A stretch of DNA of 64,000 nucleotides from Brenneria bubanii (lineage in GTDB: Bacteria > Pseudomonadota > Gammaproteobacteria > Enterobacterales > Enterobacteriaceae): the NCBI RefSeq assembly GCF_022378355.1, contig NZ_JAKMAJ010000004.1:1-64000 (forward strand). Direction: 5' to 3'. Below, piece by piece: positions 1-17,534 of this stretch. The notes below the pieces were generated by a model, which saw only the letters and a program-made list of their open reading frames with translations, was not told the origin of the DNA and made no database searches. A program made the position numbers and the translations under genes. The stretch's first letter is position 1, and each line of letters opens with the position of its first letter.

Positions 1-5
1 AGTGA

Positions 6-188
6 TCTACTATTCTGAGAAGTTATTTAGGTGGCGCAAGACCTGATGTCTATAACCCTCAGACTGGTGAAGTTTTCGATTATAAATTTACCCGAAACTC
101 AAGAAGTCCTATCAGTCAACGCCAACAGCAAAATAACATTAATAATCTGCCTAAAGTCAGTTCGCAAACTGCAATACATCCGAGATAA
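6..188 (+). pseudogene. Rhs/CDI-type toxin C-terminal tip, remnant
   Basis: Frame 3 reads SYLGGARPDVYNPQTGEV, then FDYKF and a hydrophilic tail ending IHPR before TAA at 186-188. The stretch RPDV...EVFDYK resembles the D...(D/E)xK arrangement of restriction-endonuclease-fold toxin tips (family knowledge, from memory), so a nuclease tip is plausible. A TGA at 3-5 in the same frame shows it is broken at, or just before, the window edge. It lies directly before an immunity-type gene, the usual toxin-immunity order. Confidence 0.6.
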
Positions 189-192
189 TGAT

Positions 193-855
193 ATGAAAGC
201 ATTAACTACAACTGAAAAAAAGAGTGTTCTAGATGATTGGAAGAATGCTCTAAATGTTTATGAAAAATATAAAACTCTATATTTGATTAAGAGAAATGGC
301 CCTGTTTTATGTGGTGTTTATTTAAAGCCCGTTTATAGTGGTGAACATTATGTTCCTGTCTTTCATACTCATTCAGTGTTGAGCATTTTTCCTGCTGTAA
401 GTATGTGTACACCATTTGGTTTATTGAATAAAAAAGGTGTTGGTGATTCTATCAGCTTTAAGAGGCATAAAGAAAATTTACAAGATCTTGTTGATAAGTT
501 CAGGGAGCAATGTTCAATAGCGTTCTGCAGTGAGTTATCATTCAGTCAGCTTAATAAGTTGTATGAAGACGATATCAATACTTCTTTAATATATCCAGCT
601 CATACGATGAAAAGCCATGTGTTACTGGCGTTTTGGTTCGGATATACAGAAAAGAGTCACCAACTTCTTTTACGTTATAAAAATATTATTAAGTCTTGGC
701 CTGATGAAGCTAAACGGCGATTTAATGGTGATAATGCATGGGAAGAGGATGTAAGCTCACAAATGGATATTGATAAACTGCATAATACAGTTAATAAAGA
801 GTTGGCAAAATTTAAATTAACCAAGTTGAAAGATCATGGATTATTGCCTGATTAG
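193..855 (+). CDS. putative immunity protein for the preceding toxin tip
   Basis: This 220-residue protein starts at the ATG five bases after the stop of the toxin tip; the longer open frame back to base 31 is the tip read out of frame. It has no signal peptide or membrane segment and is AT-rich like the other orphan immunity genes here. I do not recognise the family. The immunity role rests only on position after a toxin tip and on the hairpin that follows. Expected action, if correct, is cytoplasmic binding and neutralisation of the cognate toxin domain. Confidence 0.6.
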   Translation: MKALTTTEKKSVLDDWKNALNVYEKYKTLYLIKRNGPVLCGVYLKPVYSGEHYVPVFHTHSVLSIFPAVSMCTPFGLLNKKGVGDSISFKRHKENLQDLVDKFREQCSIAFCSELSFSQLNKLYEDDINTSLIYPAHTMKSHVLLAFWFGYTEKSHQLLLRYKNIIKSWPDEAKRRFNGDNAWEEDVSSQMDIDKLHNTVNKELAKFKLTKLKDHGLLPD

Positions 856-873
856 TTAAGGTTAAAGTAAAAA

Positions 874-903
874 GCCGGAAGAGATCGCAACGATCTTTCC
901 GGC
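874..903 (+). terminator. immunity-cassette hairpin, copy 1
   Basis: The left arm GCCGGAAGAGATCG pairs with CGATCTTTCCGGC across a three-base loop, with one bulged base. It is followed by GTTTTACTTTATT. It starts 18 bases after the immunity stop and is the best-preserved member of the GCCGGAAG hairpins in this region (also near 2429, 10614 and 13426). Confidence 0.7.
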
Positions 904-933
904 GTTTTACTTTATTAGCGTTCAGGTCAGCCG

Positions 934-1196
934 CTACAAATTAATCTGTGTCTCAATAATAATCCTCCCCCTTACCACCGTGACGGTAACAGGCATCCCG
1001 GTAATAAATCCGGATTCTTCGAGCCAGCGGCCTTTAAGATTTATGGCGCAGGGCGGGTTGGATTTACCATTATGCGGGGCGTACCCCACCGCGTAGTAAC
1101 GTCCTGTTTAACGGTGGCGGCTGACTTTATAGGTAACTACTCTTGTTAGTTGCTTGTGGTGAGCGGGCTGGCGTGTTGCAAGCACGTCAGTTCCGC
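934..1196 (-). pseudogene. SymE-like toxin remnant, internal stop
   Basis: The minus strand reads YAVGYAPHNGKSNPP, then INLKGRWLEESGFITGMPVT and VVRGRIIIETQINL before TAG at 934-936. This matches the SymE family pattern (INLKGxWLExAGFxTGxPVxV; SymE is a SOS-induced endoribonuclease with an AbrB-like fold). A TAA at about 1110 interrupts VSRHR-TGRYY, where the family usually has Lys, and no start codon is visible upstream. SymE genes are common neighbours of rhs loci in enterics. Confidence 0.8.
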
Positions 1197-1206
1197 GTTA
1201 ACTGCG

Positions 1207-1572: not shown

Positions 1573-1740
1573 ATCAAGCACCTCAGTCATCATGGTGGTA
1601 TCAAAAAAAGCCATGTTGCCGTCATCATCCATGCTTTGGTGCATTAATATGGACTTTACATGCTTGATTTGATGAATGATGAAAGCTACCTCATCAAGCA
1701 TAAATGCTTTATCAGAAATATTTTTATAAGGATATGAGTC

Positions 1741-1806
1741 ATGGCACGCATCCCCGAATCCGAGCTGCAGCACCTGAAGGCCGCCGAGTTCCAGTACGTG
1801 GATTGA
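1741..1806 (+). mobile_element. 5' fragment of a P4-type phage primase gene
   Basis: ATG followed by MARIPESELQHLKAAE then FQYVD and a stop. The MARIPExELQxLK start is that of CHC2 zinc-finger (P4 alpha-like) primases of satellite phages and integrative elements (recognised from memory). Only about 16 residues match before divergence. This suggests that an integrative element once occupied the site. Confidence 0.5.
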
Positions 1807-1941
1807 TCCGCTGGGGTTAGTGGAATTATTCACTTTACAGAATATTCGGCCTTCATGCTGCTGGAGGAACGCTCCGCACAACTATCGAACAAGGGCGAAA
1901 AGCGTTACCTTCTGGAAAGATAACCAATTTAAGGCTGCCAT

Positions 1942-2421
1942 ATGGTTGACATAAATGAAGAGATAAAAAAAATAGAAGCTGCTAACTTTTTCTCAAAAAT
2001 GGGGGCTAACGACCTCCATGGAGGAGATGTGATACTTATCGAAAATGTAAGGAAAGTATTTATTGAACCATTAGATGCTGATTTTAAAGGGAGCTATAAA
2101 AAAATAGAGTGGCTCCCGACGTCACCCACTCAGGATGACCCATTTTATAAAAAACAAGTTAATTAAAAAGATCTTATTGAATTACGTAAAGAGATAAATA
2201 AAAATATAATGGCCGCAACAAGAGAACTCAATAAAGCCGATTTTATTTCTTCTCCTCATGATTTTAGTGTTGCAGCAAGAAATGCAATTTGCTATGCATT
2301 TAGGCAGCTTATCACGGAGAGATATTTTTCTCTTGGTGGCAGATGGGAGAAGATCACTAATATTTATTATTCGGGTCATTGGCCTGTAGGTTTTACAAAA
2401 GAAAAATATATAGTGATTTAA
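1942..2421 (+). pseudogene. orphan immunity-type gene split by an in-frame TAA
   Basis: The frame opens at ATG 1942 ([10 protein letters not shown]) and is interrupted by TAA at 2164-2166. The same frame continues without shift to TAA at 2419-2421, giving about 159 residues in all. The C-terminal half ends with SGHWPVG, similar to the GGWPCG ending of the immunity gene at 10078-10599, which supports reading it as one gene. An internal ATG (2209) could start the second half alone. Family not recognised. Hairpin copy 2 follows 7 bases later. Confidence 0.65.
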
Positions 2422-2428
2422 ATAACAA

Positions 2429-2465
2429 GCCGGAAGTGATCCCAATGATCCTTCCGGCTATTTTT
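2429..2465 (+). terminator. immunity-cassette hairpin, copy 2
   Basis: GCCGGAAGTGATC pairs with GATCCTTCCGGC around a short CCAAT loop (one bulge) and is followed by TATTTTTAC. The stem base is the same as copy 1, while the upper stem differs in sequence but keeps its pairing. Confidence 0.7.
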
Positions 2466-2830
2466 ACCTACTGTTTAGTTCAACGATCAGGGATTAATCT
2501 CTGTCTCAATCACCTGTCTCCCCCGCTCAGCTGCAGCTATCCGGCGCAAGCCTATAATCGCTCTGGTCTGGTCAGCTCTGAACGGCTTAACTGGCAGGAA
2601 ATGCTCAGCGACTACGATGCGAGCGGTTAGCGTGCGCAGGTCGATGACTGCTGGAGCGTCAGGCGCTGGTCAACCGCGGCAGCGGCGAGCCGCACCATCT
2701 GGAACGGGGCTATCGTTACGGCGTGCTGGATCGTCTGGTGGGATAAAGGACGTTATCAGATAGAGCTCGCCGTTATCCCGTATCCAGTCGACGCCAATAT
2801 AAATGATATTGCTGTACCTCACTCAGTCTG
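2466..2830. pseudogene. SymE C-terminal scrap and Rhs core remnants
   Basis: On the minus strand, bases about 2490-2525 read GRQVIETEINP and a stop, the same C-terminus type as the SymE remnant at 934. On the plus strand, AYNRSGLVSSERLNWQEMLS followed by DYDASG, and further on LERGYRYGVLDRLVG with GRYQIEL, match the RHS repeat pattern (YDxxGxL ... YxYDAxxRL). Stops and shifts separate the pieces. These are fragments of the long extracellular Rhs shell, not an active gene. Confidence 0.6.
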
Positions 2831-2984
2831 TATTTATATTACCGTGTAATTTACAATAACTTTGTGCAGATAAAACTATCAGGGTAGGGCGGTAGCATAT
2901 GAACGATGATGCGAAGCGTTGGGTAATTTACAACCGAAATTGATGTCATGACTCGACGGATGAACAGAATTCGTATCTGGCCTG

Positions 2985-3327
2985 ATAGGGTTAGCGAGAG
3001 GCCTGAGACCGCAAGCGTATGTTCACAATCCACTGGGGTTGGCTGCATCTGGATGCCATGGCATAGAAAAACCTAAGAAAGTATCTAATTCTAACTTACC
3101 ACATGCCATAGATAGAGCCGTTGAGCTCGGTATTTATCCAGATGGAAAAACTGCTTCTGATGCTTTAAAAGATTTAGGAAATTGATAATAATGACTTTCC
3201 TAGAGAAACTATATGGGATGCGGATCGTGTATTAGTTCCGACTGAAAATAATGGCATGGTTGTATATAAAATAGCGAAAAATGGTACCGCTAAAATAAAA
3301 AAGTATTTAATGCATAGCCGGATATGA
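2985..3327 (+). pseudogene. Rhs core end plus toxin tip, frameshifted
   Basis: One frame reads IGLARGLRPQAYVHNPLGLA, which is the conserved Rhs core end (DPIGLAGGxxxYxYVxNPxxWxDPLGL) with WVDP lost, and continues into a tip (CHGIEKPKKV ... DALKDLGN) to TGA at 3183-3185. The next frame carries on with NDFPRETIWDADRVLVPTEN and stops at 3325-3327, so a single frameshift at about 3180 splits the tip. The toxin family is not recognised. No immunity gene follows within 500 bases. Confidence 0.6.
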
Positions 3328-3364
3328 GATGAAAAAAATAAAATCAATCTAGAAGTAAGTGCTG

Positions 3365-3601
3365 CTGGTGATGTGGTTTACCTCGCTCTGCCAGTAACGC
3401 GCGATATTGATGTTCTCACTGAGCCGGGTCAGCACCAGCCCCTTGGGGTACGGGCTGATACGAAATAATGTCACCGACGGTGAAGCCCTCCGGGAAAGGT
3501 GTTCAGCCACTGTGCAGCGACGCGTTCATTGAACGGCTGCAGGCTGAGTCTTTCGAGACAGGGCCACAACTCCCGGGGTTTAAGTATTTAATCCTGGCGA
3601 T
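3365..3601. other. unassigned debris between toxin scraps
   Basis: The minus strand has an open stretch without a start: VTLFRISPYPKGLVLTRLSE and further to a stop near 3365. Another minus frame reads LQPFNERVAAQWLNTFP, resembling the EQPFDERAADWIRDNG tail of the SymE-like remnant at 9640-9790. No intact gene is visible. Confidence 0.3.
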
Positions 3602-3604
3602 TGA

Positions 3605-3877
3605 GTTATCAGTCGCAGGACAGCGCGTTTGGCAGGAAAAAATGAGAATGTGCATAAGTATTTAACGTCGGAAACATATCATCAGGAAAATAAACCGAGA
3701 GCTATCCAGTATATCCAATATGTTAAAACAACAAAATCAGGCATTACTTGTAAATTAGTGCATCGTGTTAGTCGCTTCGCTTCTCAAAAAATTTAGGGGA
3801 CGGACAAACGGGAGCTTTATCGTGATGTCAATGGAAAAGACGTCGTTTGCAATATGGTAAGTGATGGTAGGTTATAG
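3605..3877 (+). pseudogene. polymorphic toxin tip with an in-frame TAG
   Basis: The frame reads AGKNENVHKYLTSETYHQEN, ... HRVSRFASQKI, TAG at 3794-3796, then GTDKRELYRDVNGKDVVCNM and a final TAG at 3875-3877. The next base starts the following immunity ORF, the tight junction usual for a toxin and its immunity gene. A TGA at 3602 closes the frame upstream, so the tip has been cut from its delivery protein. Catalytic family unknown. Confidence 0.55.
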
Positions 3878-4345
3878 ATGATCAATATTAATGCGAATAT
3901 AATTTCTAACCAATCCATTGGTGGTATTTCGTTAAGAGATAATGTGAAATTTTATTTAAATGATATACATTCAAATCATACTGTCAGGTTTTTTGATTAT
4001 TTGTTACCTGATAATGAAAAAAGAATGGCTTATGTTATTGATGAAACAATTACTGTGGCTACGTTAGCAGATGGTTTAATTACATCGATAGGATGCAATG
4101 AGAAATATAAAGGTTTTTATATGAACGCATTGCATACAGGAATGAAAATCTCTGATGTAATTAAACGTACTGATAATCAACGTATATTTAATGGCTGTAT
4201 CATAGTTAATGATGATTTTGGGTTCTCGATTGATCTCCCGTCACCTTATGATGAAATAGCAGATGATATTGATCATATTCCTTTAGATCTTATTTTGAAC
4301 GAGATGAGAGTTTCTGATTATTATTTATGGAAACCTAAAAAATAA
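3878..4345 (+). CDS. putative immunity protein (155 aa)
   Basis: The ATG abuts the stop codon of the toxin tip at 3605-3877, so it is probably the cognate immunity gene. The protein is acidic, with an especially acidic C-terminal third (SPYDEIADDIDHIPLDLIL). It has no signal peptide or membrane helix. I do not recognise the family. The frame is open and codon use is AT-rich like the neighbouring orphan immunity genes. The toxin partner is itself broken, so this is an orphan resistance gene at most. Confidence 0.65.
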   Translation: MININANIISNQSIGGISLRDNVKFYLNDIHSNHTVRFFDYLLPDNEKRMAYVIDETITVATLADGLITSIGCNEKYKGFYMNALHTGMKISDVIKRTDNQRIFNGCIIVNDDFGFSIDLPSPYDEIADDIDHIPLDLILNEMRVSDYYLWKPKK

Positions 4346-4522: not shown

Positions 4523-4936
4523 ATGTCAAGTTTTTATTATATTGAACCCGAAGTTAATGGGGAGCTTGGTGACGGAACCATAATGGATACATGCGTATAT
4601 CCGCCTGTTGTAAAAAAGCTGATTTTGTGTTTTTCGGGATGGCTTGGTGATGATTTATTGGAGTGTTATCCATGTTTTGTGGTAACGGAAAGATTAGCTG
4701 ATGAATTGAAAATCGTAGTTAAAGATGATGTTTTTTTTGAAAAAATAAATATCAAAAAATCAGATGAGTTTGATGAGGTCTATCCGGAAAAACTGTTGCC
4801 CCATTTTTATTGGATGAAAATTCTTAATGGAAGAGATATCTTCTTGTCAGAAGATAAAAGGTTAGCCGTATCTGAACGTATAATGAATATTCTAAGTGCT
4901 TTTAATATATCTAACGCTATGATAGAAAAAGCGTAA
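4523..4936 (+). CDS. putative immunity protein, Imm11/DUF1629-like
   Basis: This 137-residue protein starts MSSFYYIEPEVNGELGDG. It carries YPCFVVTERLADEL near residue 50 and a C-terminal DIFLSEDKRLAVSERIMNIL. The paired pattern (a VSERL-type segment, then DxFLxEDxRLxVSER) resembles the Imm11/DUF1629 immunity family as I remember it; this is a tentative family call. It is cytoplasmic, with no signal peptide. The 180 bases before it contain no readable toxin tip. Confidence 0.6.
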   Translation: MSSFYYIEPEVNGELGDGTIMDTCVYPPVVKKLILCFSGWLGDDLLECYPCFVVTERLADELKIVVKDDVFFEKINIKKSDEFDEVYPEKLLPHFYWMKILNGRDIFLSEDKRLAVSERIMNILSAFNISNAMIEKA

Positions 4937-5148: not shown

Positions 5149-5637
5149 ATGAATTCAAAATATACTCAGATGATTGATTTACTGATATCCCATAGCCAAA
5201 TTCAAGTGCGTTCCAGGGCATTTGATGAGAAATCAAGCCAATGGGGTGAAATAAACATTAAGCAAGGTGCAATTATTCATGAGGACAACGACTATTTGGT
5301 TTTTGACCCTTTGCCTGAAGATACTTTTGGCGCAAATGTTCATTTGATTTTAACAAATAAATTTGAAGCGGATGAAAACGCCCAGCGTTGTATAATTGTT
5401 CCATTTTTTATTATAAATAAAAATGAGGTTAAAATCGCCTCAGCATCTGAGATGTTTAATGTAGAGCTGAATTTTGAAGAGGGTTTTTATTCTCTTTATT
5501 ATGAAGTCTGTGAAGGGGATGAGGTTTATTATAAGTTAACTTTCATTCCTTCAGAAATGCCAATACAGCCAATGTATTTACTGGACGATCCCTGGGGTGG
5601 GGAGAAGGATAAATCTCTTGTCATAGGACAGGCTTAG
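5149..5637 (+). CDS. ComJ-like nuclease-inhibitor immunity protein
   Basis: The protein has 162 residues. The pattern LISHSQIQVRSRAFDEKSSQ with WGE, a central IIVPF strand, FYSLYYEVCEGDEVYYKLTF, and the end MYLLDDPWGGEKDKSLVIG fits the ComJ (competence nuclease inhibitor) family, which also occurs as immunity in polymorphic toxin loci. If so, it would bind and block a nuclease toxin tip. No matching toxin is left nearby. The start ATG sits in an AT-rich stretch without a strong ribosome site. Confidence 0.65.
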   Translation: MNSKYTQMIDLLISHSQIQVRSRAFDEKSSQWGEINIKQGAIIHEDNDYLVFDPLPEDTFGANVHLILTNKFEADENAQRCIIVPFFIINKNEVKIASASEMFNVELNFEEGFYSLYYEVCEGDEVYYKLTFIPSEMPIQPMYLLDDPWGGEKDKSLVIGQA

Positions 5638-5681: not shown

Positions 5682-5830
5682 TTATTCCGCCAGCATTATC
5701 CTAAACTCTGCCCGAATAACCATCTTACCTGGCCGCCGCTCAATCTGCGGCGATCGACAGGGCAATTCGCTGCGGATCAGACCGCCGCCGGCAAGATTCA
5801 GCTCGCCGTTATCCCGTGTCCCGTACGCGC
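5682..5830 (-). pseudogene. possible SymE-like C-terminal scrap
   Basis: The minus strand reads QIERRPGKMVIRAEFRIMLA and E before TAA at 5682-5684. The PGxMVIRAE pattern resembles the last strand of SymE proteins, and SymE scraps follow other immunity genes here. The upstream part (NGELNLAGGGLIRSE) does not align with SymE. The bases from here to 6023 show no gene. Confidence 0.3.
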
Positions 5831-6023
5831 TCTGGTAGTCGTTGCTGCACAGTACTGCAACTGCGGGCGATATCGGCATAGGAACGGCGGCGTAGCCTGT
5901 TCCAGACCATAAGCGCACTCGCCCCTGGCGCACAGAGCAGAGCAAACTGGCGCCGAATCCTGGCGGGCCTCGCGCTGCACGTGGTCGTGGATGTGAAGCA
6001 ACGCGACACAACACAACCGCTCA

Positions 6024-6935
6024 TCAGGCCGCGAGTACCAGCTGCGCGTCGCGAAAAGCGTTGTGCAGTAGCCGCCACATATGATGAGCCGCGGGCGAAA
6101 ATCGGCGGTCGGAGTTACGTAACAAGTGGCACTGGGCACTGTTGGCAATGGGGTGGTCGATGGGCACTGCCGTCAGGAAGCCATGGCTGATCGCTTCACG
6201 GGCGGCGTATTCGGTCATAAAAGAGATCCCCAATCCTGCCTGGCTCAAATTCATAGCGGTCGAAAAGAGGTTACAGCGATAAGCCGGGTGAAATTGCCTT
6301 CCTGCGGTTTTGAACATGGCGTTCATATGGCGCTGTAGGCCAAAATTTTCAGTCAGCGCGATCAGGCGGTATTGAGTTAATTCATCGATAGTGACGATGG
6401 GCTGAATAGCGATGGGATGCTGCGGAGAGACCACTGCGCAGATGGGACCCCACTGAAAGCTGTGGCGTTTGAGTTCCGGGTTGCCAATGGGACCGAAGGC
6501 GATCGCCATATCCGCTTCGCCGCTGACGATATCATTGAGCATCTCCTGCATGCTGCAGACAATAATATCAACGAACACGTTAGGGTAGCATTGAGAAAAT
6601 GTACTCATCACACCTTCAATAAAGGTAGTGACCAGTCCTCCGCCTATCCGCACCGAGATGGTCCCGCCGCGCATATGGCGCAAATCTTTCAGGTGGCTTT
6701 CCAGCTTTTCCCGTCGCTGACGGCTTTCGCAATAGTCTTCCGCCAGTAGACGCCCTGCTTCGGTGAGCACTACATTTCTCCCTCTTCGCTCCAGCAGAGG
6801 TAGCTCCAGCGCCCGTTCCAGTTGCGCTATCTGGCGGCTGATGACTGACGGATTGATCCCTAAAATATCAGCGGCTCGTCGAATGCCGCCCTGAATGCCG
6901 ACTTCATACAGATAGCTCATGGGTCTCTCGTGTAA
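6024..6935 (-). CDS. LysR-family transcriptional regulator
   Basis: A 303-residue LysR-type regulator. The N-terminal winged HTH includes GGIRRAADILGINPSVISRQ with IAQLERALELPLLERRGRNV, and the rest is a substrate-binding domain of the usual length. The ATG at 6935 was chosen because AAAGGAG lies nine bases upstream; a longer frame to 7034 would translate through a palindrome and lacks a ribosome site. It is divergent from the yjiH-like gene at 7309, the classic arrangement for a LysR protein controlling the neighbouring transporter-hydrolase operon. The effector cannot be told from sequence. Confidence 0.9.
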   Translation of the reverse strand, partial: LHERPMSYLYEVGIQGGIRRAADILGINPSVISRQIAQLERALELPLLERRGRNVVLTEAGRLLAEDYCESRQRREKLESHLKDLRHMRGGTISVRIGGGLVTTFIEGVMSTFSQCYPNVFVDIIVCSMQEMLNDIVSGEADMAIAFGPIGNPELKRHSFQWGPICAVVSPQHPIAIQPIVTIDELTQYRLIALTENFGLQRHMNAMFKTAGRQFHPAYRCNLFSTAMNLSQAGLGISFMTEYAAREAISHGFLTAVPIDHPIANSAQCHLLRNSDRRFSPAAHHMWRLLHNAFRDAQLVLAA

Positions 6936-6954
6936 CATCGTTTCTCGCTCCTTT

Positions 6955-6971
6955 GTTGACCTAAGGTCAAC
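6955..6971. promoter_or_regulatory. perfect 17-bp palindrome upstream of the LysR gene
   Basis: GTTGACCT-A-AGGTCAAC has 8-base arms around one central base. It lies 20-36 bases upstream of the LysR start, just before its ribosome site. LysR proteins usually autoregulate through dyad sites in the divergent region, so this is a good candidate operator. No binding data are implied. Confidence 0.5.
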
Positions 6972-7308
6972 AATAACATCCTTTAATAGGCATTTATCAT
7001 CCTGACTAGTTATAGATAATCGTAATTCCGACAAAAAAACCGGAATGGAGGAAAACGCAGGGCAGATAAGACAGATACGCTAATAAGACAGGCAAACTCA
7101 GGCTGTCAAAGAATAAGATATCGCTATGACGCTAGCGAGGATGAATAAGGGAGGAGGATGCCTGCCAGCCTCTTTTCAGATCAACGAATCGTTCTTATTT
7201 ATCGATAGATCTATTAGCTAAATAATAAAACAAAAATAACAAAAAATTAACAACGGTTCAAATGGCAAGCAATCGGACAGATGATTTTATTATGTAAGAG
7301 GGTAGGGT
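6972..7308. promoter_or_regulatory. divergent intergenic region between LysR gene and yjiH-like gene
   Basis: About 340 bases, AT-rich from 7195 to 7290. It must hold promoters for the divergent genes. Apart from the palindrome at its LysR end I see no clear operator or small gene. Confidence 0.5.
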
Positions 7309-7992
7309 ATGAGTGAAAATAAAACGTTGGAATGTTCCTCCGACAAAACGGCAAATGAGTGGAAAGTCGGGCCCGGAGCCTGGATTTCACTGGTTGTAGT
7401 ATTAATTGTTTTCTCAGGATTGCTTTTTAAAGTTGAAGGGATGCCTTGGCTAGGGGCTTTTGACTTCACCACGCTTGGCGGCACGTTTGGAACCATGAAA
7501 ACGCCGGAAACCAACTCCTTTATTGGCAGTGGCGGCATCAGCGCCAAGGCAGGGTTCTTATTTGCACTATCGCTGGTACCCACGGTAATGCTGGCTCTGG
7601 GACTGTTGGAGATTTTTACCCACTATGGCGCGATTCGCGCGGCGCATAAGCTGCTAACGCCGTTGTTACGGCCATTACTTGGGATTCCCGGTTATACCGG
7701 ACTGGCCTTGATTACCGATTTACAGAGTACCGATGCCGGTGCCGCTTTGACTAAAGAGTTGTATGACAGTAAAAAAATCACTCGTAAAGATGTCATCATC
7801 ATGGGGTCCTGGCAATATTCCGGCGCGGGCCTGATTAATAACTATTTCTCTATTGGTTCGGCGCTGTTCGCTTCATTGACCATTCCCATTATTATCCCAC
7901 TACTTTTAATGTTTGTGCTGAAATTCGTCGGTGCGGCAATCACCAGAATGGTTCTGAATTCTGCCTATAAAGGAGATTTTGAAAATGAGTAA
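7309..7992 (+). CDS. yjiH: YjiH-type nucleoside-recognition (Gate) domain membrane protein
   Basis: An integral inner-membrane protein of 227 residues with a membrane segment at about 27-45, a Gate domain (LITDLQSTDAGAALTKELYD in the middle) and several later helices. It pairs with the YjiG-type protein encoded next, with a four-codon overlap region. In E. coli yjiH-yjiG precede iadA (isoaspartyl dipeptidase) and are presumed to form a two-part transporter; here an M20 hydrolase takes iadA's place. The start ATG follows AGGGTAGGGT. The substrate is unknown but is probably the compound cleaved by the hydrolase. Confidence 0.8.
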   Translation: MSENKTLECSSDKTANEWKVGPGAWISLVVVLIVFSGLLFKVEGMPWLGAFDFTTLGGTFGTMKTPETNSFIGSGGISAKAGFLFALSLVPTVMLALGLLEIFTHYGAIRAAHKLLTPLLRPLLGIPGYTGLALITDLQSTDAGAALTKELYDSKKITRKDVIIMGSWQYSGAGLINNYFSIGSALFASLTIPIIIPLLLMFVLKFVGAAITRMVLNSAYKGDFENE

Positions 7993-8452: not shown

Positions 8453-8472
8453 TAACAGGCAAGGAGTAAGAC

Positions 8473-9639: not shown

Positions 9640-9790
9640 ATTTCAGAGCCGTTATCGCGTATCCAGTCGGCGGCGCGTTCATCGAATGGTTGCTCGGTGG
9701 TAAATCCGGCATTCTTCAGCCATTGTTCGGCGATGTTGATAGCCGGATATCGTGGCTGCCTTTAACCGGTCGATAGCCGACACGGGGAAA
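9640..9790 (-). pseudogene. SymE-like remnant
   Basis: The minus strand reads RYPAINIAEQWLKNAGFTTE then QPFDERAADWIRDNG. The PAINIxxQWLxxAGFxT part matches the SymE core, but the C-terminal strand is replaced by an unrelated tail and stops lie upstream. This marks the return of graveyard sequence right after the metabolic cassette. Confidence 0.55.
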
Positions 9791-9839: not shown

Positions 9840-10062
9840 TGTCCACCCTGAGCTATGGACTGTGGATGGGCGGTAGCGTGAGCGATTTTTTGTACGATGA
9901 TGAGGGAATGAAGGTCACTTACCGCCGAAACGAGTAATGAGATTCAAGCGTCGGATAGATTGCTGCACTTACCCGATAAAGTTGACGGGGGAACTTTATC
10001 TTGGCCAGTATGTGCCGAATCCCTTGGGGATAGTTTCTGTTCGAGGCAACGACTATTTCTAG
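9840..10062 (+). pseudogene. Rhs core scrap
   Basis: Bases 9979-10062 read KLTGELYLGQYVPNPLGIVS then VRGNDYF and TAG, matching the end of the Rhs shell (PDPIKLTGGLNLxQYVPNPxxWVDPLG). Bases 9840-9937 hold a short open stretch ending DDEGMKVTYRRNE whose DNA resembles that near 12703-12745, probably another piece of the same core. Confidence 0.6.
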
Positions 10063-10077
10063 CAATGGCGAATGGCG

Positions 10078-10599
10078 ATGAATGATAAGATGATAATTGA
10101 ACCTATAGAATTTATTTTTACAACGGGATTTTTTAAAGGTTTGTCTGATATAGCGACAAATAATGAAATAATAATTAAAAATACCGATGATGCTTTTTGT
10201 TTTGCCTTCGAACAAGAACTGCCATCTGATTATAAGGTTTGGAACGATATACATGATGAGTATCGTAAAAAGCTTAGGCAACATGCTGCTTTTCAAAAAG
10301 CATTTAATTTTGCCAATGATAGTCTGAAAACTCTCCAGCAAAAAAACTCTTCTTACTTTCTTGATTATAGAAAGAAGAAAGTAAAAAAATCAAATAATAA
10401 ACATGATGATTTTGTTTTTTCTGAGGCAAGAGAGGATGCCTACTCTGTATTATCCACTATAGCAATTAACAGATACTTGAATAGTTTTATTAATGATGGC
10501 GTTCTTGAGAAAATATTTAGTCTTTATCAGTGTGGTGGATGGCCCTGTGGTATGAAAGGTGATGCTATTTTGGTTTTCGATCCAGCAGTACTCATGTAA
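10078..10599 (+). CDS. putative orphan immunity protein (173 aa)
   Basis: A 173-residue cytoplasmic protein with a Lys-rich middle (DYRKKKVKKSNNK) and the ending CGGWPCGMKGDAILVFDPAV. The GGWPxG ending resembles the SGHWPVG ending of the split gene at 1942-2421. Start could be ATG 10072 or 10078; neither has a good ribosome site, and the Rhs scrap stops only 10-15 bases upstream. The family is unnamed to me. Role inferred from its place behind an Rhs core end. Confidence 0.55.
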   Translation: MNDKMIIEPIEFIFTTGFFKGLSDIATNNEIIIKNTDDAFCFAFEQELPSDYKVWNDIHDEYRKKLRQHAAFQKAFNFANDSLKTLQQKNSSYFLDYRKKKVKKSNNKHDDFVFSEAREDAYSVLSTIAINRYLNSFINDGVLEKIFSLYQCGGWPCGMKGDAILVFDPAVLM

Positions 10600-12554: not shown

Positions 12555-12699
12555 TAAGTTAGGCGGTGTTTCCTATTTTTTATCTTATTATCTGATTGTG
12601 TTATTAAAAATAAATCTTAATAATACGCCGTGCTGGTCGCTAGCCCTCTGAAATAAATCCTGAAGCCGCGGACGGGTTGGACCTGCCATTGTCCGCTAG

Positions 12700-12793
12700 C
12701 CTGAGCGATTGTCTATATGATAACGACTGAATGAAGGCAACGATAATCGAACCAAGCGCTTTTCTTGACTGGATAGATCCCTTGGGATGGTAA
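12700..12793 (+). pseudogene. Rhs core scrap (DWIDPLG)
   Basis: Bases 12767-12793 read DWIDPLGW and stop, the diagnostic end of Rhs cores. The preceding DNA (12703-12745) resembles that at 9870-9915. The rest of 12555-12962 holds no recognisable gene. Confidence 0.55.
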
Positions 12794-12962: not shown

Positions 12963-13419
12963 ATGAATAAAGAATATATTTTTTAGCGCTGCATTATCTG
13001 ATGTGGCAGAAAAGAATTACGCGGCTGGCGTGGGTCATGAAGAAGCAAAGCTATTTGTAGAGAAAATTTTTAATCTATACAAGGAGTCAGGACTAGCTAC
13101 ACCCAATATTAATTGGATAGATAAAGTACCTGCAAATGTGAAGGCATGGATGAAAGATGCGCTTGGCAATGAATTGCATTATATGAAAGAGCCACCAGGT
13201 TGGTTGCATGAAGCAAGCTGGCGGTTTATCAATGAAGAACCCATGATATTTATCTCTCAAGTTGAATTTATTGATAATGAAGTTATGGATAATAATTTAT
13301 TCACTGACGATGTTTTATATACCTTTGCCGGTAGAAAAAAAACAAATGATGGATGGTCGTTCGTTGTAAAAATGGTCAAGCAGAGTAAAAATACTATTGG
13401 TACTACTTATATTTACTAA
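12963..13419 (+). pseudogene. orphan immunity-type gene, frameshift near its start
   Basis: ATG 12963 reads MNKEYIF and hits TAG after a run of six T (about 12979-12984). One base of shift restores a frame that reads FSAALSDVAEKNYAAGVGHE and continues to TAA 13417-13419, about 151 residues in all. Without the upstream part, translation could start only at GTG 13003. The protein is cytoplasmic, with WLHEASWRFINEEPMIFISQ in the middle. Family not recognised. Confidence 0.55.
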
Positions 13420-13425
13420 ACAGAA

Positions 13426-13621: not shown

Positions 13622-13990
13622 ATGATTAGTAATGACCTTGTCGATATGGATAAGACACTGTCTTCGCCTTTTTTCTTTGATTTTTTGAAAAATATAGATG
13701 TAGACAGTGTTTTGGATTTACGGGACTCTCATCTTTTTGATACTCAATGGATGATTGATTTCAATAGATTGAAAAATGAATCTTACAATCAGGAAGATTT
13801 AGATTTTATTAATATTCTTCGTGAAAAATCCTTCAAACTATCATTTGAAGTTATAAAAAACCATGAGATTGCCTCAAGAATATCAGACGATATTGAAATA
13901 ATTGCAAAAGATATATTACAAAGAAGTCATGGTGATTGGCCAGCTAAATATCTTTGGGAATCATATAAAAATAAAAAATTCCCAGATTGA
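13622..13990 (+). CDS. putative orphan immunity protein (122 aa)
   Basis: The ATG at 13622 follows AAAAAGGAG by seven bases; a GTG one codon earlier is less likely. The protein is 122 residues, acidic and helical, ending SHGDWPAKYLWESYKNKKFP. The layout (helical body, then a xxHGDWPxxY tail) recalls small helical immunity proteins and the fragment at 14720 (SRCHPKWLGDYYIHMI). No signal peptide. Family not named. Confidence 0.6.
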   Translation: MISNDLVDMDKTLSSPFFFDFLKNIDVDSVLDLRDSHLFDTQWMIDFNRLKNESYNQEDLDFINILREKSFKLSFEVIKNHEIASRISDDIEIIAKDILQRSHGDWPAKYLWESYKNKKFPD

Positions 13991-14039: not shown

Positions 14040-14156
14040 TTCACCGCCGGGTTATGTCATCAATGTCAACGCCGGGGGGATGCTATAATCGCATCGGTCA
14101 GGTTATCGCTGAATGTGGCAATAGACGCAGCGACTATGATGCCTCTATTTTCATAA
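14040..14156 (+). pseudogene. Rhs repeat scrap
   Basis: Reads YNRIGQVIAECGNRRSDYDA in the plus frame, parallel to YNRSGLVSSERLNWQEMLS plus DYDASG at 2535-2630 and to the RHS repeat consensus. It separates two orphan immunity genes. Confidence 0.45.
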
Positions 14157-14169
14157 CGAGGGTTATTTG

Positions 14170-14571
14170 ATGCAAGATTTTATTAATGCTCTTACAACAG
14201 AACCCATTGTTGATGTTATTGTTTCTGGTTTTCTCGATGCTAAGCAACCGTTAATATTTCATCCTATGTACGAACGTTTGTATTTTCTTTTTAATAGTAT
14301 GAAATTTGAGTTGTGTATTGATGAATTTGGAACTATCAATGCTAATAGTTTAACTGAAATAAATACATGGTTTGATCTTGATGAAGATGATAGCTTTTCT
14401 TTGATGTCTTGCTATTCTCAATTGTTCAAAACTGAGCAAGAGATATTGATTACATCCGTTACTCATCAGTCTGCACCATTTGATTGTTTAACGCTTAGTT
14501 ACCGAGACGGATTTATTGACAGACAGTTAAGTTTAGATCCATGCAATTTTTTCGGGTTCACTTTTTTATGA
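14170..14571 (+). CDS. putative orphan immunity protein (133 aa)
   Basis: ATG 14170 follows ACGAGGG; the upstream in-frame TTG is too close to that site. The protein is acidic (MQDFINALTTEPIVDVIVSG ... WFDLDEDDSFSLMSCYSQLF) with no membrane segment. Acidic immunity proteins often neutralise basic nuclease tips, but no toxin tip is legible upstream and I do not recognise the family. Confidence 0.6.
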   Translation: MQDFINALTTEPIVDVIVSGFLDAKQPLIFHPMYERLYFLFNSMKFELCIDEFGTINANSLTEINTWFDLDEDDSFSLMSCYSQLFKTEQEILITSVTHQSAPFDCLTLSYRDGFIDRQLSLDPCNFFGFTFL

Positions 14572-14719
14572 AAAATCAGAATGCGTCTCATCTATAGCTA
14601 TTTTTCTTATGATGAGCGCTAATACGACTTACTTTCTACATTATCACCAAGAAGTGAAGGTGGCTTACTGTTGAAAAAGTCAGTGTGAATCGCCAGAGGA
14701 CACCAACGCGATTACTAAT

Positions 14720-14977
14720 TTGAAAGAATGTTCTGAAAAAACAAGTGATTTATTATTACAGTCTTCTTATCAAAAGGAGGCCAATGAAATCAAGCTCCTT
14801 GTTAATAGAATATTGATTCTTGACAAGGGGAACAGTGAACGAACATCAATAATAAAAAATCTAATATCTCGTTGCCATCCTAAATGGTTGGGGGATTATT
14901 ATATTCATATGATCAGTTATAAAGAATGGACTGATCTTGTTACCGAGCTTAGAAATAAATTAAAAAAAGAAATATAA
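14720..14977 (+). pseudogene. probable 5'-truncated immunity gene
   Basis: The frame has no ATG at its beginning; it runs in from a stop near 14670 and the first possible start is TTG 14720 with no ribosome site. The readable part (about 85 residues) is helical and charged and ends SRCHPKWLGDYYIHMISYKE. It looks like the C-terminal part of an immunity gene whose 5' end was lost. Confidence 0.4.
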
Positions 14978-15079
14978 AATAAAACCAAATACGGCACAGA
15001 GTATTGATGATAAAGTCCGCCTGCGTCAGTCCACCGCCGATGAGTGTGAACTTCGCTTCCTGTTGTCAAGCTAGCTGAA

Positions 15080-15206
15080 AATTTCATTGGCGGCTGCCCA
15101 CTATGTTGCTGGTTTGTGTAATCTATTGGGTAGTGAAGAATATGGCCGAAATGGTATAAAATGCCACTTAGACGAATTAATCATTAACGTTAAAAATACG
15201 GGGTGA
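15080..15206 (+). pseudogene. toxin-tip or immunity 3' remnant overlapping the next gene
   Basis: The frame, closed upstream by TAG, reads LKISLAAAHYVAGLCNLLGS then EEYGRNGIKCHLDELIINVK and ends TGA 15204-15206. Its stop overlaps the GTG start of the following gene, the tight coupling typical of toxin tip and immunity. Confidence 0.45.
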
Positions 15207-15649
15207 TAAATGTGAATGCAGATGAGGCATTAGATTTCCTTTCTCAAAATCAGCCTATGCCTTCTGATGATATTTTATCTAAGCATGAAATTGATAAATA
15301 TGATGAGGTTAGGCGCTATTTTATTCACGCGCCTGATGTCAGAGCTATTGGTCTGTTTTTAAGATCTTACGGTGAAGGTAATGGTTGGGGAGTATATCAA
15401 TTAGTTGAGGATTTTTTCTATCAGTGTAATCCCAATGACGTAAGGCAAGAAATCCAAAATATTCTTGAAGATCGAGATACCCCTGCGAGTGTCAGGTATT
15501 GGGTGACCCAAGTATCCGCAGCTTTCAGTAATGAGATATTAAGGCCGGGGCTTGAAATATCATTAGAGTCTGAAAATATCGACATAAAAGAAGCGGCAAA
15601 AATAGCCTTATCTATACTGAATGAATTTCTTTCTAATGATATCAAGTGA
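15203..15649 (+). CDS. HEAT-repeat-like immunity protein
   Basis: A 148-residue all-helical acidic protein. The start MINVNADEALDFLSQNQPMP resembles immunity proteins of the form VDEALxLLSxxQPMPxD (from memory). Later helices (FYQCNPNDVRQEIQNILED, SVRYWVTQVSAAF, ENIDIKEAAKIALSILNEFL) have the HEAT-repeat look. GTG start at 15203, with GTG 15212 as an alternative after GGGGTGA. It probably belongs to the toxin remnant whose stop it overlaps. Confidence 0.6.
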   Translation: MINVNADEALDFLSQNQPMPSDDILSKHEIDKYDEVRRYFIHAPDVRAIGLFLRSYGEGNGWGVYQLVEDFFYQCNPNDVRQEIQNILEDRDTPASVRYWVTQVSAAFSNEILRPGLEISLESENIDIKEAAKIALSILNEFLSNDIK

Positions 15650-15720
15650 ATTTTATGCTCCTCCTTGCCTTCTGTTTCTACCTCTCTGCCTGATTGGTTA
15701 TATCTTTTACATGGTGAATA

Positions 15721-16320
15721 ATGAAAAACCAAATTATAAAGTTTCCATTTCCTTTATGGGATAATATCACCAATTCTGACTCCCTATTGATTTGTAAACC
15801 ATATTGCATTTGTTTTAGAAGCGATTTTTCTGAGTCAAGCGAAGGTGATTTTGGATTTAAAAATGAAAAGGCGTGTTTGTTTTTTAATGAATTGCTAAAA
15901 AGAATTATTTTGATAAAAGAAAATAATATTGAGTTAATGAAAAAAAACATGCCGACTGAAAGCGGTCTTTACTTGTATGACGATGATAATATATTTAAAT
16001 CTCTTGAGAAGGAGTTGCTTTTTTACTTGAAAAATAAAAAGAAAAATGAGCTCTTATTAAAAAGAGGGCAAGAAGGTGAAAAAATAGAAATGCCGTTAAT
16101 ATTAAACGTTCATTCAACGAGTGGATATGATATTGAAATCGTTAATCATGCTATAGAAAATAGTTATCCATTCTTTTTAAGGTGTTTCTACACGCCACAG
16201 GCCGGTGAGTCTCTGGTTTTCTTCAATGATAATTTCGATGCTAAAATAAAAAAATTATCGTTAAGTATGGATATTGATTATATGGAAGTATCTACAATGA
16301 ATAATATTCCATACCTATAA
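15721..16320 (+). CDS. putative immunity protein (199 aa), intact paralogue of 11925-12554
   Basis: ATG follows ATGGTGAATA. The protein starts with an IIKFPFPLWDN motif, has a long Lys-rich helical middle (about 60-125) and a C-terminal module with FLRCFYTPQAGESLVFFND. It aligns along its length with the frameshifted gene at 11925-12554, so the two are duplicated or independently acquired members of one family. The family is not known to me. Intact frame, no signal peptide. Confidence 0.65.
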   Translation: MKNQIIKFPFPLWDNITNSDSLLICKPYCICFRSDFSESSEGDFGFKNEKACLFFNELLKRIILIKENNIELMKKNMPTESGLYLYDDDNIFKSLEKELLFYLKNKKKNELLLKRGQEGEKIEMPLILNVHSTSGYDIEIVNHAIENSYPFFLRCFYTPQAGESLVFFNDNFDAKIKKLSLSMDIDYMEVSTMNNIPYL

Positions 16321-16453
16321 ATCTATCGGTGCTGAGAGTGAATGTTAAACTAAATATCAGATGGTATTATAACTGTACCTCTCTTTAGTATAGATGCCGT
16401 GGCCCCTAATAAGAGCCGATTTTTTTTGTATTTGATCGCTGTCAGGTGAATGT

Positions 16454-16840
16454 GTGGTAACTGTTATGGATATATATAAAGTTATAGAAAAGTTAAAATC
16501 CATTGAAAATCGCTTGGGTAAAAAATTACCTAATGCATATAAAAAGTTTTTATCTGAAGAAGTGGGCAGTAAAGAATGCTATGAAATAAATAATGGAGGG
16601 TGTGTTGTTTATATTTATAACGTCCTTGATTTGATTGAAAGAAATCAGACTTATGCCATACAGAATGTAGAGCCTGATTATCTTTTGATCGGCCAGGATG
16701 GTGATCTGGGTTATTTTATTTGTCTGGGCGATAATGACGATAAAATATATAGTTTAGATCTTGGCGCTCTTGGTAGTTTAGAGCTGGATGAAGAGGCTAA
16801 GGATCTGTATAGCTTAGGTGCTGGCAGTGGTTGTTCATAA
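16454..16840 (+). CDS. SMI1/KNR4 (SUKH) family immunity protein
   Basis: A 128-residue protein (or 124 from ATG 16466). The pattern IENRLGKKLPNAYKKFLSEE near residue 20, then YLLIGQDGDLGYFICLGDND (about 77-96) and DLGALGSLELDEEAKDL, is that of SUKH-superfamily immunity proteins, which inactivate many polymorphic toxins. The GTG at 16454 has AGGTGA four bases upstream; ATG 16466 is the alternative. No toxin tip is legible upstream. Confidence 0.75.
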   Translation: MVTVMDIYKVIEKLKSIENRLGKKLPNAYKKFLSEEVGSKECYEINNGGCVVYIYNVLDLIERNQTYAIQNVEPDYLLIGQDGDLGYFICLGDNDDKIYSLDLGALGSLELDEEAKDLYSLGAGSGCS

Positions 16841-16897
16841 AGCGTTGAAACGCGATCATCTGCAAAGGCTGAAGAAGCGCTTTACTAAAAGTAGATG

Positions 16898-17052
16898 TCA
16901 CTATAATTTTTGCAGTAAGCCATCGTTATCTTGTAGAAAAGATAGTCGGGATACTTCATGATAAAATACCAGGAATATCTTTTTCGAACATATTAGGCAT
17001 TAAATCTATGTGTGAAAAAGTCGCTGACCTTTCCAACAACGAGAATCACTGA
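16898..17052 (+). pseudogene. 3' remnant coupled to the pentapeptide gene
   Basis: An open frame without start reads VTIIFAVSHRYLVEKIVGIL ... CEKVADLSNNENH and its TGA (17050-17052) overlaps the next ATG by one base. This is the expected junction of a toxin tip or preceding immunity gene with the pentapeptide-repeat gene. Family unknown. Confidence 0.4.
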
Positions 17053-17534
17053 TGATAATCATAAAATTTGAATCTGGTGGTGCTTTGAAAATTAAAGAAT
17101 CTACTCTCGATAGCTTTAATTTTGACAAGATGCTGCTGCATACGGCTATTTTTGAAGGCTACTCATTGCGGAAAGCCAGCCTCCGACAGGCAAATTTGCG
17201 CAGCGCTAATTTTGCATATTGTATTTTAGATGAGGCGGACTTCACTGACGCGCTGTTGATGAATACCAATTTCATCGGCGCATCATTGATAAAATCAAAT
17301 TTATCTAACTCTAAGTTTAACGGGGCTTGTTTTTCAGGCGCAAATTTACAGGGAGCAAACCTTTGTAGCGCGGATCTGTTTAGTGCAAACCTGGATGATA
17401 CGAATTTAAAAGGCGCTAATCTAGATTCGTTAAGGATAGACTATGCCAGCTTCATTGGCGCTATATATGACCACGATACTCGATGGCCCAAAAATTTCTT
17501 TCCTGAAAGAAAAGGCGCAATCTTAAAGGCATAA
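17052..17534 (+). CDS. pentapeptide-repeat protein, probable immunity protein
   Basis: 160 residues. From about residue 45 on, tandem A(N/D)Lxx repeats are clear (LRQANLRSANFAYCILDEAD, FSGANLQGANLCSADLFSAN, LKGANLDSL), with about 16 pentapeptide steps forming a right-handed quadrilateral beta-helix. Such proteins mimic DNA and can shield gyrase (Qnr, McbG, AlbG types). In this place, with a one-base overlap to an upstream remnant, it is probably an immunity gene. The N-terminal 40 residues are non-repeat. Gyrase as target is inference. Confidence 0.8.
   Translation: MIIIKFESGGALKIKESTLDSFNFDKMLLHTAIFEGYSLRKASLRQANLRSANFAYCILDEADFTDALLMNTNFIGASLIKSNLSNSKFNGACFSGANLQGANLCSADLFSANLDDTNLKGANLDSLRIDYASFIGAIYDHDTRWPKNFFPERKGAILKA

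What the first reader, a model, noticed from the sequence alone, without database searches (positions are those of the whole stretch)
1..17534. Large orphan-immunity graveyard behind an Rhs locus
About fifteen small immunity-type genes stand in tandem over 17 kb, most of them separated by Rhs core scraps (QYVPNPLG, DWIDPLG, HNPLGLA, RHS repeats) and broken toxin tips. It looks like a record of successive toxin-tip replacement, with old immunity genes kept and slowly decaying. Several families (193-855, 3878-4345, 10976-11461, 13622-13990, 14170-14571, 15721-16320) are unrecognised and may be new immunity families with new toxin partners.
Basis: partly seen in the sequence, partly recalled or inferred. 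Interest (0 to 1): 0.75.

Follow-up and report, generated by a model that had tools for sequence, protein, structure and literature searches.

The report
Toxin-tip swapping element and its fossils
A bacterial chromosome holds a row of leftover protection genes from weapons it used to carry, and related genomes suggest that a site-specific recombinase element plugs new weapon tips into the same gene and pushes the old ones aside.

Summary
The graveyard is real but less regular than described: 16 small immunity-type genes in 1-17534, three of them broken, no intact toxin tip seen, and an unrelated block at 6024-9576. Homologues of I3, I4, I6, I7, I10 and I15 lie in toxin loci elsewhere; I8/I14, I9, I12 and I16 stay unproven.
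The main result is how such arrays arise. In this genus, Dickeya, Lonsdalea, E. coli and others a 6.5-7 kb unit repeats: DPIG codons, toxin tip, immunity gene, hairpin, antisense SymE, antisense XRE, CHC2 primase, XerC-like recombinase, right end. A right-end pattern that excludes DPIG gave 13 matches in 392 genomes (control 0); 12 of 12 with sequence behind them abut the Rhs DPIG site base for base. Tandem units have 98.5-98.8% identical backbones with unrelated tips. A circular 11.3 kb Lonsdalea record carries units without Rhs core and matches a chromosomal copy at 99.98%, starting exactly at DPIG. CdiA versions join at VENN. The window keeps one decayed unit and one clear and two weak right-end scars. 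Integration itself is inferred. Six paper searches with recombinase or integrase terms showed no description.

The parts
30..188 (+). 3' end of a toxin tip (GGARPDVYNPQTGEVFDYKF...), partner of I1
   Evidence: open frame directly before I1; same tip end in G001 L054
193..855 (+). I1, immunity-type gene, no Pfam/NCBIfam family
   Evidence: 96% identical in G001 L054:5546-6205
863..914 (.). conserved bidirectional hairpin after I1
937..1164 (-). SymE-family gene, decayed
   Evidence: relatives hit PF08845
1210..1572 (-). XRE / RstR-like regulator, decayed
1741..1785 (+). first 15 codons of the CHC2 primase-like gene, then fused to an Rhs core end
1789..1941 (+). Rhs core end (DPLGL) and scrap of a tip
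   Evidence: reading frame
1942..2421 (+). I2, immunity-type gene with one in-frame stop; full-length relative of I6
   Evidence: E 0.001 against I6
2430..2457 (.). conserved hairpin 9 nt after I2
2544..2743 (+). Rhs core scrap (YD repeats)
2889..2984 (+). weak right-end scar (GGCGGTAGC...), then Rhs core end
   Evidence: alignment only
2985..3330 (+). Rhs core end GLARGLRPQAYVHNPLGLA and a broken tip
3400..3575 (-). SymE-family scraps
3587..3868 (+). decayed toxin tip, partner of I3
   Evidence: 52% to tip ORF L056:11196-11633, E 4e-23
3878..4345 (+). I3, immunity gene (new family)
   Evidence: 75% homologue directly behind an Rhs tip in G008; alignment A2
4523..4936 (+). I4, immunity-type gene
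   Evidence: homologue in Vibrio campbellii pyocin/immunity array
5149..5637 (+). I5, ComJ family nuclease inhibitor
   Evidence: PF11033 63.1 bits, cut-off 25
5688..5876 (-). SymE-family scrap
6024..9576 (.). not part of the array: LysR regulator, Gate membrane protein, a further ORF, M20 peptidase
9672..9746 (-). SymE-family scrap
9869..10030 (+). clear right-end scar, then Rhs core end QYVPNPLG, start of the I6 cassette
   Evidence: 71-83% DNA matches to G003 rhs loci
10072..10599 (+). I6, immunity gene for an AHH nuclease tip
   Evidence: 67% homologue over residues 2-175 directly behind a PF14412 tip in G135 L111
10976..11461 (+). I7, immunity gene (new family)
   Evidence: 83% homologue directly behind Rhs core+tip in G001 L055
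11871..12555 (+). I8, frameshifted relative of I14
12686..12790 (+). weak right-end scar and Rhs core end DWIDPLG
   Evidence: reading frame and alignment only
13003..13419 (+). I9, immunity-type gene, 5' end broken
   Evidence: no relative in plasmids
13622..13990 (+). I10, immunity gene (new family)
   Evidence: homologues directly behind complete rhs in Dickeya undicola and P. frederiksbergensis
14072..14150 (+). Rhs YD-repeat scrap
14170..14571 (+). I11, immunity-type gene
   Evidence: homologue between Rhs scraps in G035, in a cluster of small genes in G189
14720..14977 (+). I12, small ORF, unproven
15203..15649 (+). I13, immunity-type gene
   Evidence: 47% homologue in an E. coli PAAR/SUKH-3/ISAs1 island; a second E. 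coli locus lacks the island
15721..16320 (+). I14, relative of I8, otherwise orphan
16454..16840 (+). I15, SMI1/KNR4 (SUKH) immunity
   Evidence: PF09346 35.7 bits, cut-off 25.4; 70% copy in an Rhs cassette of G003
17052..17534 (+). I16, pentapeptide-repeat protein, immunity role unproven
   Evidence: PF00805

Best explanation
Region 1-17534 is a fossil array of toxin-tip/immunity cassettes shed from an rhs gene. Shown: in related genomes the cassettes lie in a unit that starts at the DPIG codons of the Rhs core and runs tip - immunity - (usually) hairpin - antisense SymE - antisense XRE - CHC2 primase-like - XerC-like tyrosine recombinase - right end; the right end is joined at one fixed base to the DPIG codons of the next, displaced Rhs fragment. 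Inferred: the recombinase integrates a circular unit at the DPIG codons (joint CCCTAT-GACCCG-ATAGGG), so that the rhs frame reads into the new tip, and the old tip with its immunity gene is pushed downstream, where tips decay and immunity genes persist. Units pile up in tandem and then lose their backbone. The window retains one decayed unit (I1 - hairpin - SymE - XRE - first 45 bases of the CHC2 gene) and one clear and two weak right-end scars before three cassettes. Longer core fragments in the same loci indicate that homologous recombination, as proposed before, acts as well.
For: SymE-XRE-CHC2-XerC in the same order and orientation in 14 mapped loci. Right-end pattern without DPIG: 13 matches in 9 of 392 genomes, 7 genera, control 0; 12 of 12 with sequence behind them continue with G[AG][CT]CC[GA]ATAGGG, 11 of them DPIG and one GPIG. 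A local scan gave 11 of 11, but its pattern held the first 5 bases of the junction. G003 units of 6507 and 6465 bp: 98.8% identical over 5735 bp, first 0.73-0.77 kb (tip+immunity) without similarity. E. coli SCU-113 units of 6662 and 6633 bp: 98.5% over 5749 bp, first 0.9 kb without similarity; K-12 has no annotated xerC or primase between rhsC and ybgA. Circular Lonsdalea populi record, 11,289 bp: two units, right end|DPIG at both joints, core similarity only from DPIG on; 99.975% over 3944 bp to the G620 chromosome, beginning at the G of GACCCGATAGGG. Catalytic R-K-H-R-H-Y in 10 of 11 recombinases aligned, the 11th is cut short. Own genome: C42 has core-tip-imm-hairpin-SymE-XRE-CHC2 first half, C33 CHC2 second half-XerC-right end|DPIG. 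CdiA counterpart joined at VENN in an Enterobacter and a Salmonella plasmid.
Against: No intact unit lies in the window, and the long right end was not found there with up to 7 mismatches; the scars are of a shorter, decayed type whose element was not seen whole, and two of the three rest on alignment by eye. Many displaced cassettes in the same loci begin with longer core stretches (e.g. L051, L057), which fits homologous recombination. The hairpin is missing in some units (L155, L156, L157). In E. coli SCU-113 the rhs gene is annotated with an internal stop and the first xerC as frameshifted. The circles could be tandem arrays mis-assembled; the Shigella one also holds a longer core piece. 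No empty/filled pair of close strains was compared and no recombination was observed. Two unit-bearing genomes (G328, G339) show no core similarity at the units and no right-end match. Burkholderia homologues of I10 follow a gamma-glutamyltransferase gene, a Paraburkholderia homologue of I4 stands alone, and one E. coli homologue of I13 has no toxin genes beside it.
Confidence: 0.8

Rival explanations
1. Tips are displaced by RecA-type homologous recombination between core copies, through circles, without a dedicated recombinase; the CHC2-XerC genes are passengers that happen to sit in the loci.
For: Jackson 2009 (PMC2935791, passages) proposed this; longer core fragments precede many displaced cassettes.
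Against: One fixed base joins the right end to the DPIG site in 12 of 12 unbiased cases over 7 genera; by eye the right ends do not resemble the core upstream of DPIG; the break between circle and chromosome falls on the same base.
Confidence: 0.15
2. The row is a selected polyimmunity island, a store of defences against neighbours' toxins, rather than a decaying graveyard.
For: 13 of 16 immunity-type ORFs are open while no intact tip was seen; Zhang 2012 describes polyimmunity loci, several beside recombinases such as XerC/D (PMC3482391, passages); Kirchberger 2017 suggests protection as a reason for retention (PMC5361080, passages).
Against: Polyimmunity loci there are said never to be interrupted by toxin genes or cassettes; here scraps of tips and Rhs core intervene. 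Three genes are broken.
Confidence: 0.4
3. The circular records and tandem units are assembly artefacts.
For: Tandem arrays can be closed into false circles; G207:C39 is a 7259-bp contig that begins at GACCC and ends at CCCTAT, as an assembly graph would cut it.
Against: G003, G620 and E. coli SCU-113 have the same joints inside chromosome-size contigs; joints recur in 7 genera.
Confidence: 0.1
4. Some of the small genes (I9, I12, I14/I8, I16) are not immunity genes but unrelated cargo.
For: No toxin-linked relative found for I14/I8 or I9; I12 and I16 were searched only in Pfam, NCBIfam and the fetched loci.
Against: Similar size, strand, base composition and place as the supported ones.
Confidence: 0.35

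Closest known systems
Rhs C-terminal tip displacement (Jackson et al. 2009, PMC2935791; passages read)
   Same: Old tips with core fragments stand in arrays behind the intact gene; circular intermediate proposed.
   Different: [quoted passage not shown] here a recombinase gene is part of the unit and the joint is one fixed base.
V. cholerae T6SS orphan immunity arrays (Kirchberger et al. 2017, PMC5361080; passages read)
   Same: Sequential displacement leaves rows of orphan immunity genes.
   Different: They state that there is no evidence of an integrase; I saw no backbone module described in the passages.
Polyimmunity loci (Zhang et al. 2012, PMC3482391; passages read)
   Same: Rows of diverse immunity genes, in several cases near recombinases such as XerC/D.
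   Different: Those are said never to be interrupted by toxin genes or cassettes; a role of the recombinase was a conjecture.
Integron gene cassettes (recalled)
   Same: Tyrosine recombinase, circular cassettes, newest first, older ones pushed back.
   Different: Each unit here carries its own recombinase; insertion is inside a coding frame; the recombinase scores 126.4 bits against a cut-off of 265 for the integron integrase model, but 565.6 against 371 for XerC-type PRK01287.
Gamma-mobile-trio elements (recalled; only the NCBIfam model GmtY was seen)
   Same: Tyrosine-recombinase elements that carry antibacterial toxins (recalled).
   Different: Match to GmtY is 17.8 bits, cut-off 340; whole genes, not tips, are carried (recalled).

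Membership tests
Orphan immunity gene array | several diverse immunity genes in one orientation without intact cognate toxins | tested here: met
Orphan immunity gene array | genes confer protection against toxins | not testable with these tools
   no assay
Polyimmunity locus (Zhang 2012) | never interrupted by toxin genes or cassettes | tested here: not met
   tip and core scraps between genes
Site-specific integrative element of the tyrosine recombinase kind | recombinase with intact catalytic residues | tested here: met
   10 of 11 aligned; PF00589 130 bits
Site-specific integrative element of the tyrosine recombinase kind | fixed attachment site, flanking direct repeat | tested here: met
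   12 of 12 joints at the DPIG site; GACCCGATAGGG at both ends in L115, L052, L187
Site-specific integrative element of the tyrosine recombinase kind | circular form | tested here: inconclusive
   two deposited circular records, artefact not excluded
Site-specific integrative element of the tyrosine recombinase kind | recombination observed | not testable with these tools
   bench work needed
Integron | recombinase outside the cassettes, IntI-type integrase, attC cassettes | tested here: not met
   recombinase inside each unit; TIGR02249 126.4 of 265 bits; attC not tested
SUKH immunity (I15) | SMI1/KNR4 fold by profile | tested here: met
   PF09346 35.7 bits over cut-off 25.4
ComJ nuclease inhibitor (I5) | ComJ profile | tested here: met
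   PF11033 63.1 bits over cut-off 25

The most novel reading that the evidence does not exclude
A widespread class of XRE-CHC2 primase-XerC elements is an engine of polymorphic-toxin evolution: each circular unit carries one toxin tip and its immunity gene, and the recombinase integrates it in frame at the conserved junction codons of the delivery gene (DPIG in Rhs, VENN in CdiA). The conserved motifs at the border of variable tips are then attachment sites, and orphan immunity arrays are integration records read newest first.
Probability: 0.65. Interest if true: 0.93.

Novelty: new variant of a known kind. Interest (0 to 1): 0.85.

Why it matters
[quoted passage not shown] A recombinase that sits in the exchanged unit, with a fixed joint in the coding frame and candidate circular forms in public records, makes the question directly testable in named genomes such as E. 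coli SCU-113. It also gives a way to recognise unit ends, hence to pair orphan immunity genes with their lost tips.

Tried and rejected
Even-sampled order searches found few relatives because the families are rare: I3 3 of 217 genomes, I7 1, I14 1, I1 1, I11 3, I6 2 of 285, own genome included. A named-genome scan with I14 gave no relative; one with the I10 alignment gave 10 loci. Plasmid searches for I3, I6, I9, I11, I14 gave nothing. I first took the conserved hairpin for the 3' homology arm of tip exchange; it is specific (29 exact matches in 9 of 10 genus genomes, control 0), and in all 26 copies in fetched loci an ORF of 60 aa or more ends 7-46 nt upstream (in one copy that ORF is SymE, the other strand giving the immunity gene), but it lies inside the unit, so I read it as a shared bidirectional terminator. 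E. coli megablast with 9600-17600 gave nothing. In one search, 68 of 69 family genomes match the CHC2 protein; 6 have it at over 50% identity, the other 62 only at 22-30%, which I took for housekeeping DnaG. The regular expression for joints printed none at all, even known ones, so it was useless and joints are counted; the 22 joints listed as right ends were picked by a pattern that includes DPIG and are no test. The P. aeruginosa PA1609 tandem (8179 bp) starts at no VENN codons. Leptospira plasmid p6 has CHC2 and a recombinase but no toxin that I recognised.
Full report
WHAT IS THERE. Between 1 and 17534 I find 16 small + strand genes of immunity type, I1-I16 (coordinates in parts). Three are broken: I2 has one in-frame stop, I8 is a frameshifted relative of I14, and I9 is broken at its 5' end. 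Thirteen are open. I saw no intact toxin tip. The row is cut by 6024-9576, a LysR regulator, a Gate membrane protein, an unscanned ORF and an M20 peptidase. Rhs scraps are found at six places, not between most genes.

ARE THEY IMMUNITY GENES. By family: I5 is ComJ (PF11033, 63.1 bits) and I15 SMI1/KNR4 (PF09346, 35.7 bits). ComJ inhibits the competence nuclease ComI, which Zhang 2012 treats as a toxin-domain family (PMC3482391, passages). By place of homologues: I3 has a 75% homologue directly behind an Rhs tip in G008, and the decayed form of that same tip stands before I3 in the window (52%, E 4e-23). I7 has an 83% homologue directly behind an Rhs core plus tip in G001. I6 has a 67% homologue starting at the last base of a PF14412 AHH nuclease tip ORF in G135. 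I10 has homologues directly behind complete rhs genes in Dickeya undicola 2B12 (66%) and Pseudomonas frederiksbergensis, and close behind a DUF6531 protein and a tip ORF in Tenacibaculum; the three tips resemble each other by eye (HHVP..RK..GRPF...HDHWR) and have no family above cut-off where scanned. Against this, 11 Burkholderia homologues were found (3 plasmid, 8 genome records); in two annotated ones the gene follows a gamma-glutamyltransferase and no toxin, and in two unannotated ones the frame before it looks like the same gene. I4 has a homologue inside a pyocin and immunity array of Vibrio campbellii but stands alone in the one Paraburkholderia record inspected. I15 has a 70% copy in an Rhs cassette of G003. 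I11 lies between Rhs scraps in G035 and in a cluster of small genes in G189. I13 has a 47% homologue in E. coli, present in 154 of 5426 genomes; of two chromosomes inspected one has it in an island with PAAR, SUKH-3 and ISAs1 genes, the other between cusS and nrfB without toxin genes. I1 keeps the end of its tip in front of it; I2 follows an Rhs core end and is related to I6 (E 0.001). I8/I14, I9, I12 and I16 have no such support.

A REPEATING UNIT. A DNA search with 1-17800 matched 10 of 10 genus genomes; in nine of them pieces of the array match, mostly at rhs loci, in G002 only the M20 stretch. Mapping of components in the fetched loci showed one repeated order: Rhs core, DPIG codons, tip, immunity gene, usually a hairpin, antisense SymE (PF08845), antisense XRE (RstR-like), CHC2 primase-like protein of about 980 residues (PF01807, Toprim), XerC-like recombinase (PRK01287, PF00589) (families). 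SymE-XRE-CHC2-XerC stand in this order and orientation in 14 loci. The Dickeya undicola contig has the unit whole behind VgrG and a 1426-residue Rhs. The window has the first part in the same order and strand: I1, hairpin, SymE, XRE, and the first 15 codons of the CHC2 gene, cut and fused to an Rhs core end before I2. G001 has the I1 gene with a longer form of the unit, its recombinase cut. In the own genome, contigs C42 and C33 hold the two halves of a unit, one ending and one beginning at the same place in the CHC2 gene.

ONE FIXED JOINT. After XerC come 0.8-1 kb, then ...AAAAAGTACGACGGCGTCGGGATCGTCCCTAT, directly followed by GACCCGATAGGG, the DPIG codons of a truncated Rhs core end with its own tip. 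A local scan with this right end plus GAYCC found 11 of 11 at DPIG. To remove the bias I searched 392 family genomes with the 32 bases before GACCC only, three mismatches allowed: 13 matches in 9 genomes and 7 genera, none with the reversed control. One ends with its contig; the other 12 of 12 continue with the same codons base for base (11 DPIG, one GPIG), with different tips behind most. Intact genes have the Rhs core, not the right end, before these codons. The joint reads CCCTAT-GACCCG-ATAGGG, two 6-base arms around a 6-base spacer, the layout expected of Xer-type sites (recalled). The catalytic residues R, K, H, R, H, Y are kept in 10 of 11 recombinases; the other is cut.

SAME BACKBONE, DIFFERENT CARGO. 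In G003 two units in tandem (6507 and 6465 bp) are 98.8% identical over 5735 bp, while the first 0.73-0.77 kb, the tip and immunity gene, show no similarity. In E. coli SCU-113 two units (6662 and 6633 bp) are 98.5% identical over 5749 bp and their first 0.9 kb are unrelated. They lie between rhs and ybgA-phrB; the rhs gene is annotated with an internal stop and the first xerC as frameshifted. K-12 has rhsC, ybfB and H-repeat genes there and no annotated xerC or primase. In all, 60 of 5426 E. coli genomes match the XerC-to-right-end stretch, the 12 listed over 77% of it and none over 80%; I inspected one. In G620 units 2 and 3 are 95% identical including cargo, unit 1 differs.

CIRCLES. The Lonsdalea populi N-5-1 record NZ_CP072857.1 is a circle of 11,289 bp for which no replicon is typed: tip, immunity, SymE, HTH, primase, XerC, a toxin-antitoxin pair and a second tip set. 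It has right end|DPIG at both joints and core similarity only from DPIG on. Over 3944 bp it is 99.975% identical to the G620 chromosome, and the match begins at the G of GACCCGATAGGG of the chromosomal rhs. So one molecule has a right end, the other the Rhs core, to the left of the same base. A Shigella flexneri circle of 8,758 bp has one such joint but also a longer core piece. Mis-assembly is not excluded.

THE SAME IN CDIA. On Enterobacter plasmid pJBIWA003_2 the order is CdiA-type hemagglutinin, small gene, HTH, CHC2, XerC, toxin-antitoxin pair, then a fragment identical to the hemagglutinin gene from the VENN codons on (7685-bp repeat). The right end before VENN is nearly the same in a Salmonella plasmid stretch whose toxin gene is not annotated. 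HTH-CHC2-XerC genes also stand near large secreted or toxin-like genes in Providencia, Pseudomonas, Paraburkholderia and Janthinobacterium plasmids; I did not resolve their joints.

SCARS IN THE WINDOW. A shorter right end has the same GGCGGTAGC motif 102 bases before the DPIG site (146-147 in the long form). Of 23 motif matches listed, 12 are at 146-147, 5 at 102, 2 at other distances and 4 without the site in reach. The window has the motif at 9869; at about +101 stands TACCCGATAAAG, which I read as the decayed site. By alignment weaker scars lie at about 2889 and 12686. 9862-10029 or parts of it match G003 rhs loci at 71-83%. I did not see the element that belongs to this shorter form.

READING. 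The best account is an array left by repeated integration of recombinase units at the DPIG codons of an rhs gene, with later loss of the backbones, plus ordinary homologous recombination. Shown are the parts, the fixed joints, and the cargo change on one backbone; integration by this recombinase is inferred. That old immunity genes stay open while tips decay suggests that they are still useful, which I did not test.

LITERATURE. Passages read: PMC2935791, PMC5361080, PMC3482391. Six searches of the open library with CHC2, integrase, tyrosine recombinase, XerC, site-specific recombination or attachment-site terms together with Rhs gave 0 to 5 papers each; I saw only their titles and abstract starts, none of which describes such an element. 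Subscription papers and most preprints were not searchable.

Noticed in passing
window 1-30: The first 30 bases equal C41:701-730 of the own genome, inside what looks like another immunity-type gene; the contig may begin in a fused scrap of that gene.
   Followed up: partly
window 17600-17730: Reading frame resembles an IS3-type OrfA transposase scrap (recalled likeness), at the right edge of the array.
   Followed up: no
window 19576-19652: tRNA-Arg (tct) just beyond the array, a possible island boundary.
   Followed up: no
L188:11176-11765, L190:10176-10765, L184:29-630, L192:11248-11836, L186:10298-10863: A ParD/RelE/ParE-type toxin-antitoxin pair follows XerC in these five units, possibly an addiction module of the element.
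   Followed up: no
L157, L158 (G339) and L156 (G328): Tandem SymE-XRE-CHC2-XerC units of about 6.5-6.8 kb without Rhs core similarity at the units or right-end match; the target gene is unknown.
   Followed up: partly
L115:5561-5998, L099:5324-5941, L100:4583-4921: A tip family (HHVP...HDHWR...GPRQGDF) shared by Dickeya, Pseudomonas and Tenacibaculum, without a Pfam family above cut-off, partner of I10.
   Followed up: partly
L195 (Leptospira interrogans plasmid p6): HTH, CHC2 (39.8% identity) and tyrosine recombinase in the same order, beside ParA/ParB genes.
   Followed up: no
L178 (G207:C39): A 7259-bp contig that begins with GACCCGATAGGG and ends with TCCCTAT: exactly one unit.
   Followed up: no
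L112:5567-5989: In Photobacterium sp. GJ3 the ORF directly before the I4 homologue looks toxin-like by eye (HHAVEQQ).
   Followed up: no
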